Source: Nipponacmea schrenckii (taxonomy: Eukaryota > Mollusca > Gastropoda > Lottiidae). From it: a stretch of DNA of 64,000 nucleotides. Positions 4,601-8,706 of the stretch are shown here, piece after piece; the stretch's first letter is position 1, and every line of letters begins with the position of its first letter. Both the position numbers and the translations under genes were made by a program. The stretch covers positions 1,364,001-1,428,000 of the forward strand of contig JAUJPP010000005.1 in assembly GCA_030562195.1 (NCBI GenBank). Direction: 5' to 3'. The notes under the pieces were generated by a model, which had not been told where the DNA came from, did not search any database, and saw only the letters and a program-made list of their open reading frames with translations.

Positions 4601-5045
4601 AAAATAATAGAGTTTTTTCTTTTTTAGGTACAAGAATTCATTCGGTGATGATATTATAAAGAATTATTGTGTAGGCCCTATTGAGAAGAGCTGTTCAACC
4701 TTCTGGAGATTTTCAGGCATCATACTTCTTACTTGAAGTTTAAATTCACAGAAAGCGTTGACAATACAGGGTTTTCATGAGAAGAGTAGGCCTAAGTGTT
4801 TTTTTTCGATCCCGAATTATGTCAATTCTTATATCCCCGTGTGAAGCATATTCAGATAATAACATTGATGAAGGAAAATAAAAAAATAAATCAACATTAA
4901 AGGGCATTAGGTTAATTTTGTCACTTCATTTACCGTGGAAATCAAAACATCATTTAAACATTATGCCTATGCCTATGATTGACAGAAATGTAATGATGTG
5001 TTTTTATGATATACATGTAGTTAATGTGTTTAACAAAATAAATAC

Positions 5046-5112
5046 AGTGAAACCTGGCTATAACGAATCATACGGGATCGAACAAATTAGTTCCTTATAG
5101 CCGAAATTCGTC
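5046..5112 (+). repeat. Short repeat resembling a pogo/Tigger-type terminal repeat
   Basis: Holds CAGTGAAACCTGGCTATAAC and, about 30 bp later, a complementary TTATAGCC. This resembles ends of pogo-like DNA transposons as I remember them. A similar CAGTGAAACCCAGTTATTTC is at 17396. No transposase is attached. Confidence 0.4.
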
Positions 5113-5737
5113 ATATCATTTTCTATGTCCGCCATCGTGGATAAAGTCAAAATTGCCCAGAAATGTGTTAAGGGTGTAATTCTCTATAAAAAGTCTTCTT
5201 CGACACCACCTAAACTTCGCGCTGCGCCTAGTGCACAAATCTTCATGGTGTATTGTTAAACATGAAATGCTATACGTTTCTACGTTTTTACCTTTTTGAA
5301 TTATTCAACATCCATTTTAGGATAAAATAGCGAACTTTAGCTGAATTCATATTTGACTTTGACGAAAATTTGGAAAAAAATGAAAAATTTATATTGGAAA
5401 AAAATGAAAAATGTATATTTTCAGAACAAGTTATTTGTTAAACGTTGGCTATACGTTTCTACCATAATTTAATTTGAATTGTTCAACAGCCATTTTTTTT
5501 CAGGCCACATTTTTAATGAAAATAGCAACACAGAATCACTCAAGTTGAACCAATTACTATAACCATCGCTAACTACCAAACTTGCTTTGTCAAAAATGTT
5601 TAATAAATTATTACAAGATAATTGTCTTTTTACAAGCGACTGGTTAATCCAAGAAAGACTATTTATCGGCGTCTACTGGTGAACACTAAACACGTGCTTT
5701 TCACGTCAGTTTAGATTTTGTTGATCGTATTGTTATA

Positions 5738-5760
5738 GTCATGGGTTCGAGTCCCAGGTG
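5738..5760 (+). other. T-arm-like hairpin (possible tRNA-like remnant)
   Basis: TGGG-TTCGAGT-CCCA gives a four-pair stem with a standard T-loop. No convincing A-box lies at the right distance upstream, so only the B-box half can be supported. It is the outermost element of the tRNA-like cluster. Confidence 0.35.
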
Positions 5761-6054
5761 AAGAATTGAATGGGAGAAAAAATGATTTATTACCAGTCGT
5801 TCCTTCTTCTGATCCTTTTGAAAATTTGAGGTACCATTCCTTAGGCGTTTACCAGCCCACAACAAAAATAAAAAATAGGCCAGCTAATGATTTCAGATAT
5901 ATATTTCAAAGGAAAAATGGAGTAGAAAAATGATCGCATAGATTTCACTCATTCTTGAACATTTGCCGTAGCTGAGTCGATACGGTGGTATACTTTTCTT
6001 AATAAAAAACATAAGGGGACGGTCATATTGGATAAGTAATCAACTTTCATATCA

Positions 6055-6124
6055 GACATGATGGCTCAGTGGTAGAGTGTTGGTCTGGTGTGCGAGAGAC
6101 CCGGGTTCGATTCCCATTGATGGC
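6055..6124 (+). ncRNA. tRNA-like element (plus strand, 1)
   Basis: Acceptor halves GACATGA and TGATGGC pair at five of seven positions. D-stem GCTC/GAGT around a loop containing AGTGGTA. T-loop TTCGATT with three stem pairs. In the middle GGTCT and AGACC could pair over a 10-nt loop, which is not a standard anticodon arm. The next TTTT is 28 nt downstream (6153). Confidence 0.6.
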
Positions 6125-6214
6125 GAAACTTTACAAAGTCTACTTAAAGTAATTTTACATTATTAAATCTTAAGGTTACAGTTATAATGGATAAAAATTC
6201 ACAATTCTTAGTTC

Positions 6215-6295
6215 GACGAGCTGGCCCAGTGGGTTAGTTAGTCAACTTAAAGCCACGGAGTGGCGAAATGCGTGGGTTCGAATCCCATGGGTGGC
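6215..6295 (+). ncRNA. tRNA-like element (plus strand, 2), long variable region
   Basis: 81 nt. A-box-like TGGCCCAGTGGGTTAG and a full five-pair T-stem GTGGG/CCCAT around TTCGAAT. The central part holds a perfect hairpin GCCAC-GGA-GTGGC. The acceptor pairs at about four of seven positions. The size suits a Leu/Ser-type layout, but no T-run follows nearby. Confidence 0.55.
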
Positions 6296-6392
6296 AAGAC
6301 ATCCTAGGCTGTTGACTTTACCCCAGCCTGAAACAAATCTGAGTTACGATCTGCAAAAATGTCTGGCTAGATATTTAAAAACCGAAAGTTGG

Positions 6393-6470
6393 GTTTGAGT
6401 GGGAATCGAACCCGGGACGTTTGAACGATAGAAAAATGTAGGGAGGGATAAACATCTCTACGATCACGGC
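6393..6470 (-). ncRNA. tRNA-like element resembling tRNA-His at its 5' end
   Basis: The minus strand begins GCCGTGATCGTAGAG, close to the start of metazoan tRNA-His as I remember it (GCCGTGATCGTATAG). The T-loop is TTCGATT with GGG/CCC pairs. The middle is diverged and longer than normal. A TTTTT run is 11 nt past the predicted end (plus-strand A-run 6377-6381). Confidence 0.55.
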
Positions 6471-6772
6471 CAAAAAGGCAGGCTTCAAAAATGTGTATGT
6501 AAGTCATATTTAAAGTTCAAAGTAAAAACCTATTATAGTTAGTAACTATCTTCCTCCCTCCACTCTCTTTTAGACAGTTAGGGAACCCGGGCCCCTGTTT
6601 GACCCTCTCTCTTCCTCTTTGACCCTCGTTCACTCTATTGTAACTGTCTTGCCTGCGGCAGGCCCAACGCCTCAACCAAGCATCAGAGATTGGACTCTGA
6701 TTTGTTACTTTAGAGAACCTCTGTCAATGAAGTGATTGGGCAGACATTAGGAATTTTTCTCAAAATCCCTGT

Positions 6773-6855
6773 GTCCAACTTGAGTCTCGAACCCTCACCG
6801 TCGTAGCAGAGTTCTGACACAAGTCCATCCAGCCATCCGTCTAGGCCATAGAGAC
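6773..6855 (-). ncRNA. tRNA-like element (minus strand, 5th in phased array)
   Basis: A-box-like TGGCCTAGACGGATGG with D-stem GCC/GGC, and a B-box-like TTCGAGACTC. TGAG and CTCA can pair around the T-loop. The outer acceptor bases GTC and GAC pair. A TTTT run lies 7 nt past the predicted end (plus strand 6762-6765). Confidence 0.55.
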
Positions 6856-6928
6856 CCGTTCCAAATGGCGATTTAAAACACATATTTAAAGGTAACCTTA
6901 AGATTTGTTTTATCAAAACTTTACAGTT

Positions 6929-6999
6929 GATCTTCACGGGATTCGAACCCGAGCCATTTGTGTCTCACACCGTCGCCTCTACCACTAGACCACCGTGGT
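6929..6999 (-). ncRNA. tRNA-like element (minus strand, 4th in phased array)
   Basis: 71 nt. D-stem GTCT/AGGC pairs fully (one G-T) around AGTGGTAG. T-arm CGGG-TTCGAAT-CCCG is perfect. The acceptor pairs poorly. A TTTT run lies 10 nt past the end (plus strand 6915-6918). The D-arm matches that of the 7223-7293 member. Confidence 0.6.
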
Positions 7000-7071
7000 C
7001 ATGTCTAAACTGGAGGAAATAATAGATATCATTCGTAACTTCAATAAATATTTTATTAAAATCTTTCCTCG

Positions 7072-7147
7072 GTATCCACTGGGGATCGAACCCACGACCA
7101 TCAGATAGAGATATTACCAACACTCTAACCGACCGAGCCACAGAGAC
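7072..7147 (-). ncRNA. tRNA-like element (minus strand, 3rd in phased array), best fold
   Basis: 76 nt. Acceptor halves GTCTCTG and TGGATAC pair at six of seven positions (two G-T). D-stem GCTC/GAGT. T-arm TGGG-TTCGATC-CCCA. A weak anticodon-like arm GGTA-ATATCTC-TATC has a 7-nt loop with T at the position before the triplet. A TTTT run is 10 nt past the end (plus strand 7058-7061). Confidence 0.65.
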
Positions 7148-7222
7148 TCGATGTTGCCACAGTCAATTTACATGCTTATATAGCTGATCTGGAAGTTTGA
7201 AAATGTTCAAAAGATAGTTTAA

Positions 7223-7293
7223 GCTAACGAGGAGGTTCGAACCCCGGATCATTCAGTATCAGACAAACGCCTTTACCACTAGACCACCAAGTC
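7223..7293 (-). ncRNA. tRNA-like element (minus strand, 2nd in phased array)
   Basis: 71 nt. D-stem GTCT/AGGC around AGTGGTAA; T-arm GGGG-TTCGAAC-CTCC. The acceptor ends do not pair well. A TTTT run is 10 nt past the predicted end (plus strand 7209-7212). Confidence 0.58.
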
Positions 7294-7366
7294 GATGAAG
7301 ACGGTGAAAGATTTAAGAGATATATTTGGTGATCCAGCAATGTAAATAATTGATAAAAATCATTTT

Positions 7367-7438
7367 GCTCATCGTAGGAATCGAACCCCCAACCTCTACC
7401 TTTCAAGACTGTCTCGCTATCGACTGAGCCACGAAGGA
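7367..7438 (-). ncRNA. tRNA-like element (minus strand, 1st in phased array)
   Basis: 72 nt. A-box-like GTGGCTCAGTCGATAGCG and T-loop TTCGATT in GGGGGTTCGATTCCTAC. The acceptor pairs at about five of seven positions when shifted by one base. A TTTTT run lies 7 nt past the end (plus strand 7355-7359). Confidence 0.58.
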
Positions 7439-7654
7439 TTGGTTCAAATGTGATCAGTTGACGACCTGTACCCTGGAAGTGAATAGTTTTCAGGCAAAAC
7501 ACAAACTGAGATAACGGTACATGTCACGTGGTTATGTCACGTGGTTTAAGATCCCAATATCCAGCCCCTATTCGCAACCAAACTGAAACTGGTTTCTGTA
7601 TATTGGCTATTGAGTAACGACAAGACTGTTAAAATCACCAATCAATTTCAGCCA

Positions 7655-7739
7655 ACTGCGATGGCTCAATCGATAGCGTGTCGGTTCAGTAAAACGTGCG
7701 GAGAAATTCGACGACCCGAGTTCGACTCCACTGTGAAGA
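7655..7739 (+). ncRNA. tRNA-like element (plus strand, 3)
   Basis: A-box-like TGGCTCAATCGATAGCGTG and B-box-like GAGTTCGACTCC. The A-to-B distance is longer than in standard tRNAs. No T-run follows closely. It is the right edge of the cluster. Confidence 0.5.
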
Positions 7740-8706
7740 ATATAAAAAGGTAAGAATTTAAATTATTTAATGCACAAAACCAATACATAAACAAATCAGA
7801 ATACAAAAAATCAGAATACATAATACAACATATAACTTAATAAAAAGACAAAAAAAAAAACAAAACCAGATCGCTCATAAGGTGATAATTAACTACCCAG
7901 TCACATGAAAAAGATACAAAAAATCATGGCCGTTTTGCAAAAAAAAAGTTTATCATATTTTGTCCTCGTCATAAAAAAAATAAGCTATCAATCATTGCTT
8001 TTAAATTTATACCGTAATGTCCATTCTTTGAATATTTCCAAGTTCAATGATAGTCCATCGTCAACTCGTTGTATTTATCTAGCCACAGCATGAAATGCAC
8101 GTGGAGGTCATTTGAACACAGTAAATAGTGATCATTTGAATCTTGTCCACAATATGGCGATAAGGTTACTTTAATCGAGAGTAAATGAAGAAGACACGAT
8201 CAAGCAAGCCGCATGCTTGGATACACTCAGAGACCTTTTTAAATAATCACCCAAACCGACTAAAATTTCTAAATCAAATTAATGTGTTATTTATATCTGA
8301 ATATCCAATGTCTTACTCAGCTGAGCTTATAATGTGATCATTTCGCCAATACTTGAACGGGTATACATTGATATATTTAGTCAGCATCATCCAGGTACAA
8401 AACCTCGTATACTGTCATAGTATCGAGTTTGTTAGTCTGGATGGCAATGTTTCTCTTCACTATAGTACAAGTAAATCAATCATTAAACTGGTTATCAGAG
8501 TCTATTAACGGTCTTCTATCCAATCAACAAAACATAATACTTGACATCAGAGTCTACTGTCTATTTTAAGACTTGGTTGTAATTGCTATTTATATTAATC
8601 ATATTTCACCATCGTTTGAAAATATATTTTTCTATATAAAGCTTTCCCAATTCACGAATCGTAATACTTCTCAAAACCAGTGGCACTAGGTGTGTGCATC
8701 GCCATC
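7740..8706. other. Upstream region of the RBR ligase
   Basis: No coding frame recognised. Bases 8152-8172 are identical over 21 bases to 9684-9704 inside the downstream coding region. Part of this stretch is probably promoter or 5' UTR, but no motif fixes the transcription start. Confidence 0.4.

What the first reader, a model, noticed from the sequence alone, without database searches (positions are those of the whole stretch)
6393..7438. Phased array of diverse tRNA-like units on the minus strand, about 146 bp apart
Five successive tRNA-like sequences start at 7438, 7293, 7147, 6999 and 6855 (intervals 145, 146, 148, 144), with a sixth at 6470. Each has an A-box-like D-arm and a T-loop with TTCGA, yet the sequences between the boxes and the roughly 70-nt spacers look unrelated. 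A tandem repeat would have similar spacers, and random SINE insertions would not be phased. The clover leaf is only partly formed (best at 7072-7147), so these may be a separate class of Pol III RNAs and not decoding tRNAs. The near-nucleosomal spacing is notable but may be coincidence.
Basis: partly seen in the sequence, partly recalled or inferred. Interest (0 to 1): 0.9.

Follow-up and report, generated by a model that had tools for sequence, protein, structure and literature searches.

The report
Facing polymerase III arrays around cores
In what is likely a limpet-like snail, a 2.5-kb DNA module with two rows of short tRNA-like units facing a nearly unchanging core occurs 21 times near one end of one chromosome-sized contig, and because evolution has kept the units' predicted RNA polymerase III start and stop signals while the RNA bodies drifted, the rows likely serve as polymerase docking sites and not as tRNAs.

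Summary
Six minus-strand tRNA-like units (A-box spacing 144-148 in the five-unit row) are joined by plus-strand units facing them across a core at 6150-6870. The 2.5-kb module (about 5623-8147) was found 21 times, all within C5:1.37-4.87 Mb of a 399-Mb assembly. The units are not tRNAs: acceptor and anticodon pairing is at chance, against near-perfect pairing in this genome's real tRNAs. They are not SINE heads: in the minus units a T4 terminator follows the B box at 15-20 nt in nearly every aligned copy. Across 18 aligned modules A box, B box and T4 change 3 times more slowly than the rest of the outer units (0.40 vs 1.25 steps per site, p 1e-11); the RNA body changes as fast as spacer. The core changes more slowly still (0.17). 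A genome-wide pattern search found two more modules on the same contig (5.29 and 6.26 Mb) without overall sequence similarity but with the same facing layout and TATA-like boxes. Best reading: a new, region-specific class of Pol III array, kept likely for polymerase/TFIIIC loading. Transcription, binding and function are untested.

The parts
5623..8147 (.). whole module (extent of blastn homology to other copies; some copies match from about 5281)
6150..6870 (.). conserved core, 95-100% identical in 21 copies; sharp left edge
6055..6125 (+). tRNA-like unit p6062 (A box 6062, B box 6104); T4 later than in the minus units (21-50 nt after the B box in 18 copies)
6215..6572 (+). unit p6222 (A 6222, B 6275); first T4 at +345/346 from the A box in 18 of 18 aligned copies: predicted ~355-nt Pol III RNA
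6377..6475 (-). unit m6468 with weak A box, B box 6412-6402, T5 at 6381-6377
6762..6855 (-). unit m6848 (A 6848, B 6793-6783, T4 6765-6762)
6915..6999 (-). unit m6992 (A 6992, B 6949-6939, T4 6918-6915)
7058..7147 (-). unit m7140 (A 7140, B 7092-7082, T4 7061-7058)
7209..7293 (-). unit m7286 (A 7286, B 7243-7233, T4 7212-7209)
7355..7438 (-). unit m7431 (A 7431, B 7387-7377, T5 7359-7355)
7655..7740 (+). unit p7662 at the right end, pointing away from the core; no T4 within 70 nt
5711..5760 (+). decayed left-array unit (B box 5744, A box not recognisable)
7175..7182 (-). TATA-like box of m7140 (TATATAAG, -42 from A box)
6881..6890 (-). TATA-like box of m6848 (TTTAAATATG)
6505..6514 (-). TATA-like box of m6468 (TTTAAATATG)
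6190..6197 (+). TATA-like box of p6222 (GATAAAAA)
5975..6207 (+). inverted paralogue of 7080-6864 (left and right arms of an old imperfect palindrome)

Best explanation
The finding is part of one of 21 copies of a 2.5-kb module in which two rows of short tRNA-like units face a 720-bp conserved core, and it likely works as a dense loading site for RNA polymerase III and TFIIIC that marks or organises this end of the chromosome while the RNA bodies are largely free to change. Shown by sequence: unit anatomy (TATA-like box, A box, B box, T4 terminator at a near-fixed offset in the minus units), facing orientation, 21 copies found only in C5:1.37-4.87 Mb, slow change of boxes and terminators against fast change of RNA body and spacer in the outer units, a near-invariant core, and two further modules of the same layout, without overall sequence similarity, at C5:5.29 and 6.26 Mb. 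Inferred: that TFIIIC and Pol III bind and transcribe the units, giving RNAs of about 75-100 nt, plus one of about 355 nt started by p6222 and reading into the core. Inferred further: that what selection keeps is the act of Pol III loading, transcription and clean stopping, with the core as a factor-binding or long-RNA element, so that the module acts in cis as a boundary, clamp or nuclear address for the region.
For: Not tRNAs: acceptor pairs 30 of 63 (shuffled 29.5), anticodon stem 27 of 45 (null 27.1), against 6.73 of 7 and 4.96 of 5 in 45 scored tRNAs of the same genome; ARAGORN and Rfam (gathering) find nothing in the window. T4 offset after the B box in aligned copies: m6468 18/18 at 20, m6848 18/18 at 15 or 17, m6992 17/18 at 20 (one at 29), m7140 18/18 at 19-20 (in three of these a deletion has removed the unit's own A box), m7286 15/15 at 16-20, m7431 18/18 at 17. 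Steps per site in six outer units: A 0.30 (66 sites), B 0.59 (66), T4 0.00 (16 sites, four units), body 1.17 (193), 3' acceptor 1.42 (60), unassigned 1.23 (243); A+B+T4 vs rest of unit p 1.3e-11; core 0.17. TATA-like score above real tRNAs (p 0.0014; p 1.8e-7 for 18 units of L060/L061, of which the L060 units are partly tandem duplicates). 178 of 204 unit calls point to the core. Genome-wide tandem B-box pattern: 29 of 34 matches lie on C5:1.37-6.26 Mb, reversed control 1. Same layout in L060 and L061. Precedents: 5S pseudogenes that keep their internal boxes and associate with the nucleolus (PMC3261910, abstract and passages); TFIIIC at domain borders (PMC4226948, passages).
Against: No transcript, TFIIIC or Pol III binding, or Hi-C data could be consulted. 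Fixed terminators are more than a bare TFIIIC site would need. The core keeps its RNA units' bodies too (15 of 269 vs 45 of 374 variable sites, p 0.006) and the ~355-nt RNA folds better than shuffles (z -3.1, 1 of 100 shuffles as good), which favours an RNA role for the core. Consensus folds beat column shuffles (z below -2) in 4 of 9 units, p6062, p6222, m6848 and m7140, though without covariation. Box constraint taken one by one is not always significant by the shift test (B box p 0.27, TATA p 0.21). TATA in the outer units is only marginally slow (p 0.055), and the 5' acceptor part (0.93 steps per site) is not clearly different from spacer (p 0.096). In PMC3261910 TFIIIC enrichment did not track localisation.
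Confidence: 0.45

Rival explanations
1. The modules are RNA genes: the core encodes one or more functional non-coding RNAs, above all the predicted ~355-nt transcript of p6222, and the outer tRNA-like RNAs are co-products or decoys. The rows of promoters raise local Pol III concentration for the core gene.
For: Core 95-100% identical in 21 copies beside a flank (6015-6149) at 27% mean divergence; first T4 of p6222 at +345/346 in 18 of 18; fold z -3.1; core RNA units vary less than core spacers; consensus folds beat column shuffles in 4 of 9 units.
Against: No covariation supports a structure: 0 or 1 covarying pair per unit in 9 units; no Rfam match at gathering level and only weak ones at E 1.9-9.5 in the core; outer RNA bodies evolve like spacer; the cores of L060 and L061 share only short words with the window core.
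Confidence: 0.3
2. Non-functional local amplification: an old Pol III unit array was copied along 3.5 Mb by segmental duplication, and gene conversion keeps core and boxes alike.
For: Divergence grows with distance along the contig (Mantel r 0.53 core, 0.47 right array); modules come partly as tandem pairs about 3-6 kb apart.
Against: Conversion does not pick out A box, B box and T4; the core holds 12 sites with more than two alleles where 3.5 are expected under even change, so change is uneven rather than erased; two arrays without overall similarity share the layout.
Confidence: 0.15
3. Cluster of decayed decoding tRNA genes (pseudogenes).
For: A-B distances fall in two groups, 42-48 and 53-57, as in short and long-variable-arm tRNAs; A-box variants resemble those of Glu, Ser/Leu and Lys genes of this genome (by eye).
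Against: Stems at chance while boxes are near perfect; boxes and T4 still constrained.
Confidence: 0.05
4. SINE heads or LTR elements with tRNA-like promoters (TRIMp3/Helenus) inserted side by side.
For: Each unit has A and B boxes; the genome gives 28,023 first-look tRNA-family candidates, so tRNA-like sequence is common.
Against: In the six minus units T4 follows the B box at once, leaving no SINE body; phased, facing, found in one region; outside it only an 80-bp piece on C8 and an 87-nt match at C5:19.9 Mb were found.
Confidence: 0.05

Closest known systems
tRNA genes and tRNA gene clusters
   Same: A and B boxes, spacing of the boxes, short trailer and T-run terminator (real tRNAs here: T4 1-8 nt after the 3' end in 44 of 53)
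   Different: no acceptor or anticodon stem, stronger TATA-like box, facing two-sided layout, RNA body not conserved in the outer units
Other type-2 Pol III genes with TATA-like boxes (vault RNA, 7SL, EBER, 4.5S RNAs; PMC7279448 passages)
   Same: internal A/B boxes plus a TATA-like element about -30 from the start and a T-run
   Different: single RNAs with conserved sequence; here arrays of diverging RNAs; no Rfam match
TFIIIC-bound ETC/COC sites and tDNA insulators (PMC4226948 passages; fission-yeast COC recalled)
   Same: A/B boxes kept without a tRNA; clusters thought to set domain borders
   Different: ETC sites lack Pol III units; here TATA-like box and terminator are present too, and sites come in facing arrays
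5S rDNA pseudogenes with kept internal boxes (PMC3261910, abstract and passages)
   Same: biased conservation of Pol III factor sites in non-coding copies, proposed to position loci in the nucleus
   Different: single pseudogenes, other promoter type, no core, no phasing
S. pombe centromere (tRNA clusters flanking a central core inside inverted repeats; recalled, no call)
   Same: core between inverted arms that carry Pol III genes
   Different: real tRNA genes, one centromere per chromosome, tens of kb; here 2.5-kb modules, 21 copies
PcH-sat of Patella caerulea (PMC11121367 passages) and Helenus TRIMp3 (PMC10886601 abstract)
   Same: limpet repeat from a tRNA-type SINE; small-RNA promoter inside a repeat
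   Different: PcH-sat is a 179-bp high-identity satellite matching the 3' part of Nin-SINE; Helenus is an LTR element; phased facing units are not described in what I saw

Membership tests
decoding tRNA gene | seven-pair acceptor stem and five-pair anticodon stem | tested here: not met
   30/63 and 27/45 pairs, both at the shuffled level; L060/L061 acceptor 40/126, null 46.4
decoding tRNA gene | score above the Rfam RF00005 cut-off or ARAGORN call | tested here: not met
   best 28.7 vs 29 bits; ARAGORN none in the window, L023-L025, L060, L061
type-2 Pol III transcription unit | A and B boxes at permitted spacing with T-run terminator downstream | tested here: met
   six minus-strand units (A box of m6468 weak); p6062 has a later T4, p6222 and p7662 none within 70 nt
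type-2 Pol III transcription unit | transcribed by Pol III | not testable with these tools
   no RNA or ChIP data held
SINE | dispersed copies with a 3' body after the tRNA-like head | tested here: not met
   copies found only on C5 apart from an 80-bp piece on C8; T4 directly after the head in the minus units
Helenus/TRIMp3 | LTRs with primer-binding site and polypurine tract, target-site duplication | not tested
   the repeat search of 5300-8000 listed no long direct terminal repeat; PBS, PPT and TSD not searched
vault RNA | Rfam vault model match | tested here: not met
   no match at gathering level in 64 kb, none among the matches at E<=10 in 5000-8500
ETC/COC TFIIIC site | TFIIIC bound without Pol III | not testable with these tools
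   conserved terminators argue for transcription
TMER-like tRNA-miRNA unit | stable hairpin directly downstream of the tRNA-like part | tested here: not met
   downstream 84-nt folds lie at z -1.3 to 0.8 in 8 of 9 units; -2.35 in m6468

The most novel reading that the evidence does not exclude
A new class of chromosome-address element: modules without overall sequence similarity that share one anatomy, two phased rows of promoter-and-terminator-only Pol III units converging on a private core, packed into 5 Mb at one end of a single chromosome, where together they give that chromosome a Pol III-built identity, such as a pairing centre, sex-region mark or domain clamp.
Probability: 0.3. Interest if true: 0.95.

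Novelty: categorically new. Interest (0 to 1): 0.85.

Why it matters
It is a case where selection appears to keep the Pol III promoter and terminator while letting the RNA change, in many copies of one element. This makes a long-standing question, whether Pol III/TFIIIC loading itself organises chromosomes in animals, directly testable in one well-defined region. Three families with one layout and no overall sequence similarity would mean the architecture, not the sequence, is what is needed. Confinement to one end of one contig hints at a chromosome-specific job.

Tried and rejected
Rejected: decoding tRNA cluster, SINE heads, TMER-like tRNA-miRNA units, known Rfam RNAs, protein-coding core (ORFs overlapping it are at most 84 aa, and copies differ by 1-2-bp indels), co-amplification with the neighbouring RBR-type gene (its other matches lie on C7 and C10). 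The 'A box' at 5966 turned out to lie in the paralogue of the 3' end of m7140. RNAalifold gave no useful covariation. An indel count gave no clear sign that spacing is protected: gap runs per substitution allele are 0.061 in the right array against 0.066-0.096 in other flanks and 0.144 in the core. Phage collection: no match. The RBR protein search scored no homologue. Not in print within what was searched: the listings of the ten paper searches showed no title or abstract on such arrays; most listed papers were not opened, and the library lacks most subscription journals.

An earlier hand count of core variable sites inside one search was wrong (18/269, 62/374) and is replaced (15/269, 45/374). 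The window's m7286 is missing from its row because its palindromic B box was read on the other strand; of the 26 'outward' searches are the right-end unit and 7 are such misreadings or stray hits. Rows dropped: 18 of 21 modules were aligned; C5:4103530 and 4869732 (incomplete in the fetched stretch) and 4768585 (arrays too diverged) were left out. Spacing uses 13 of 21 modules (the window and 7 with missing or misread units left out). In one search, 45 of 53 tRNAs were scored. In one search only 63 of 28,023 candidates were scored. In one search one L061 unit (B box 1383) was left out because no A box was recognised, and the A box of the L060 unit at 1795 was set by hand.

Full report
What is there. 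The six minus-strand units of the finding are confirmed at the given places. Each has a B box 43-56 nt after the start of its A box (weak in m6468) and a first T4 17-20 nt after the B box (6 of 6; chance about 1e-9). Eight of nine mapped units have a TATA-like 8-mer (score 6 or more of 8) about 32-46 nt upstream of the A box (summed score 57 against 49.0 at random window positions, p 0.004), more than in real tRNA genes of the same genome (p 0.0014). Plus-strand units lie to the left and point to the right (p6062, p6222 and decayed ones near 5744 and 5966), so two rows face each other; a further unit, p7662, closes the right end and points outward. The left pair p6062/p6222 is an inverted paralogue of m6992/m6848 (alignment score 192 against 136 +/- 7.5 for shuffles), so the module is an old imperfect palindrome.

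Not tRNAs, not SINEs. Counted over nine units, acceptor pairs are 30 of 63 and anticodon-stem pairs 27 of 45, what shuffling gives; T-stem pairs, which include the B box, are 31 of 45. Forty-five real tRNAs of the genome scored by the same rule give 6.73 of 7, 4.96 of 5 and 4.87 of 5. Folding energies of single units are not consistently better than shuffles (z from -2.7 to 1.2); consensus folds of the aligned copies beat column shuffles in 4 of 9 units but show at most one covarying pair each. A SINE head is followed by a SINE body; in the minus units a terminator follows at once. The plus units differ: p6062 has its T4 21-50 nt after the B box, p6222 and p7662 none within 70 nt.

A repeated module in one region. 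The window is C5:1364001-1428000 of a 399-Mb assembly in 1093 contigs; C5 is 43.5 Mb long. The GPCR next door is 57% identical to a Patella vulgata protein, so the species is likely a limpet-like gastropod (inferred). One unit with its spacer finds 18 matches, itself included, between 1.37 and 4.87 Mb of C5 and one weaker match at 19.9 Mb. The 721-bp core finds 21 copies, 95-100% identical, all in the same 3.5 Mb, plus a 77-bp piece on C8 (the tool calls its counts lower bounds). Homology of the fetched copies ends at about 5281-5623 and 8147. Copies nearer on the contig are more alike (Mantel r 0.53 core, p <0.001), which points to local duplication.

What evolution keeps. In 18 aligned modules (3 of 21 left out) the A-B distance and the T4 offset of the minus units are nearly fixed while the sequence between drifts. 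Parsimony steps per site in six outer units: A box 0.30, B box 0.59, T4 0.00 (four units), RNA body 1.17, 5' acceptor part 0.93, 3' acceptor part 1.42, leader 1.49, trailer 1.32, unassigned spacer 1.23; boxes plus T4 against the rest of the unit p 1.3e-11; TATA region 0.91 (p 0.055). By a stricter shift test all features together stand out in the right array (0.958 against 0.898, 0 of 590 shifts), and the A box (p 0.0085) and T4 (0 of 590) do alone; B box (p 0.27) and TATA (p 0.21) alone do not; p6062 (p 0.05) and p7662 (p 0.08) are marginal. So promoter and terminator are held and the RNA body is not. The core is different: 0.17 steps per site, and within it the three RNA units vary less than the spacers (15/269 against 45/374, p 0.006); change is uneven (12 sites with more than two alleles, 3.5 expected), which argues against simple homogenisation. 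In the core, p6222 has no T4 until +345/346 in 18 of 18 copies, a predicted ~355-nt RNA (fold z -3.1, 1 of 100 shuffles as good).

A class, not a single family. The genome-wide pattern of two perfect B boxes 133-163 nt apart on one strand has 34 matches (reversed control 1): 24 in the 21-module region, 2 at C5:5.29 Mb, 3 at C5:6.26 Mb, 2 in a 22-bp repeat on C11 and single ones on C13, C14 and C805. The two new places (L060, L061) match the window over no more than 61 nt (72%) and each other over one 131-nt stretch (69%), yet repeat its anatomy: four or five right-pointing units, a core of roughly 0.8-0.9 kb, three to seven left-pointing units, A-box spacing 124-158 between scored neighbours, TATA-like boxes (mean 6.72 of 8 in 18 scored units, p 1.8e-7 against real tRNAs; L060 units are 75-81% alike in part, so not independent), T4 within 30 nt in 14 of 18, and acceptor pairing at chance (40 of 126, null 46.4). 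In the right row of L060 the T4 lies only 5-14 nt after the B box. The two cores share a motif, AGGCCGGTACAGG, twice each and 50-52 bp apart, which the window lacks. The pattern sees 15 of the 21 known modules, so arrays with worn boxes on other contigs would be missed.

How it likely works. Each module would load TFIIIC, TFIIIB and Pol III about nine times within 2 kb, with transcription of the facing rows running toward the core and, in the minus row, stopping at once. If the RNA bodies are free to change, the likely object of selection is the loading and stopping, as proposed for 5S pseudogenes with kept boxes (PMC3261910) and for TFIIIC clusters at domain borders (PMC4226948). The core would add a specific factor or a longer RNA. 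That 21 plus 2 modules sit in one 5-Mb stretch suggests a job tied to that stretch: boundary, nuclear address, pairing or sex-linked function. None of this is shown; the rival that the core RNA is the product is nearly as good.

Novelty. None of the ten paper-search listings (calls under Tried and rejected) showed such arrays; the library is partial. Each part (type-2 Pol III promoter, TATA-like box, tRNA clusters) is known; the two-sided, core-facing, region-confined module with free RNA bodies is not known to me.

Noticed in passing
L024:2057-2136 (C8:39872556-39872635): An 80-bp, 95% identical copy of the p6222 promoter that begins at the left edge of the core and ends at the A box; no B box follows.
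   Followed up: partly
L060:2484, 2536; L061:2202, 2252: A paired 13-nt motif AGGCCGGTACAGG, 50-52 bp apart, in the cores of two otherwise dissimilar modules; genome-wide count not obtained (tool busy).
   Followed up: partly
G000:C3, 7.80/37.43, 14.68-14.72/44.31-44.34 Mb: Five tRNA hits on C3 recur exactly 29,626,336 bp further on, which suggests that a stretch of C3 is duplicated in the assembly (duplicated haplotype or misjoin).
   Followed up: no
L025:2300-3090: In the module at C5:4768585 the right array has diverged beyond plain alignment, yet five units with A/B boxes, 136-156-nt B-box spacing and T4 remain, next to a 93.6% identical core.
   Followed up: partly
G000 whole genome: 28,023 first-look candidates for the tRNA family: the genome seems rich in tRNA-like sequence, possibly SINEs.
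   Followed up: no
window:8665-11367: 900-aa open frame with RING and IBR domains (RBR-type); its nearest relatives form a small cluster at C7:8.81 Mb.
   Followed up: partly
window:13614-15602: Long 35-bp tandem array (57 copies) about 5.5 kb from the module; other copies of the module not checked for it.
   Followed up: no
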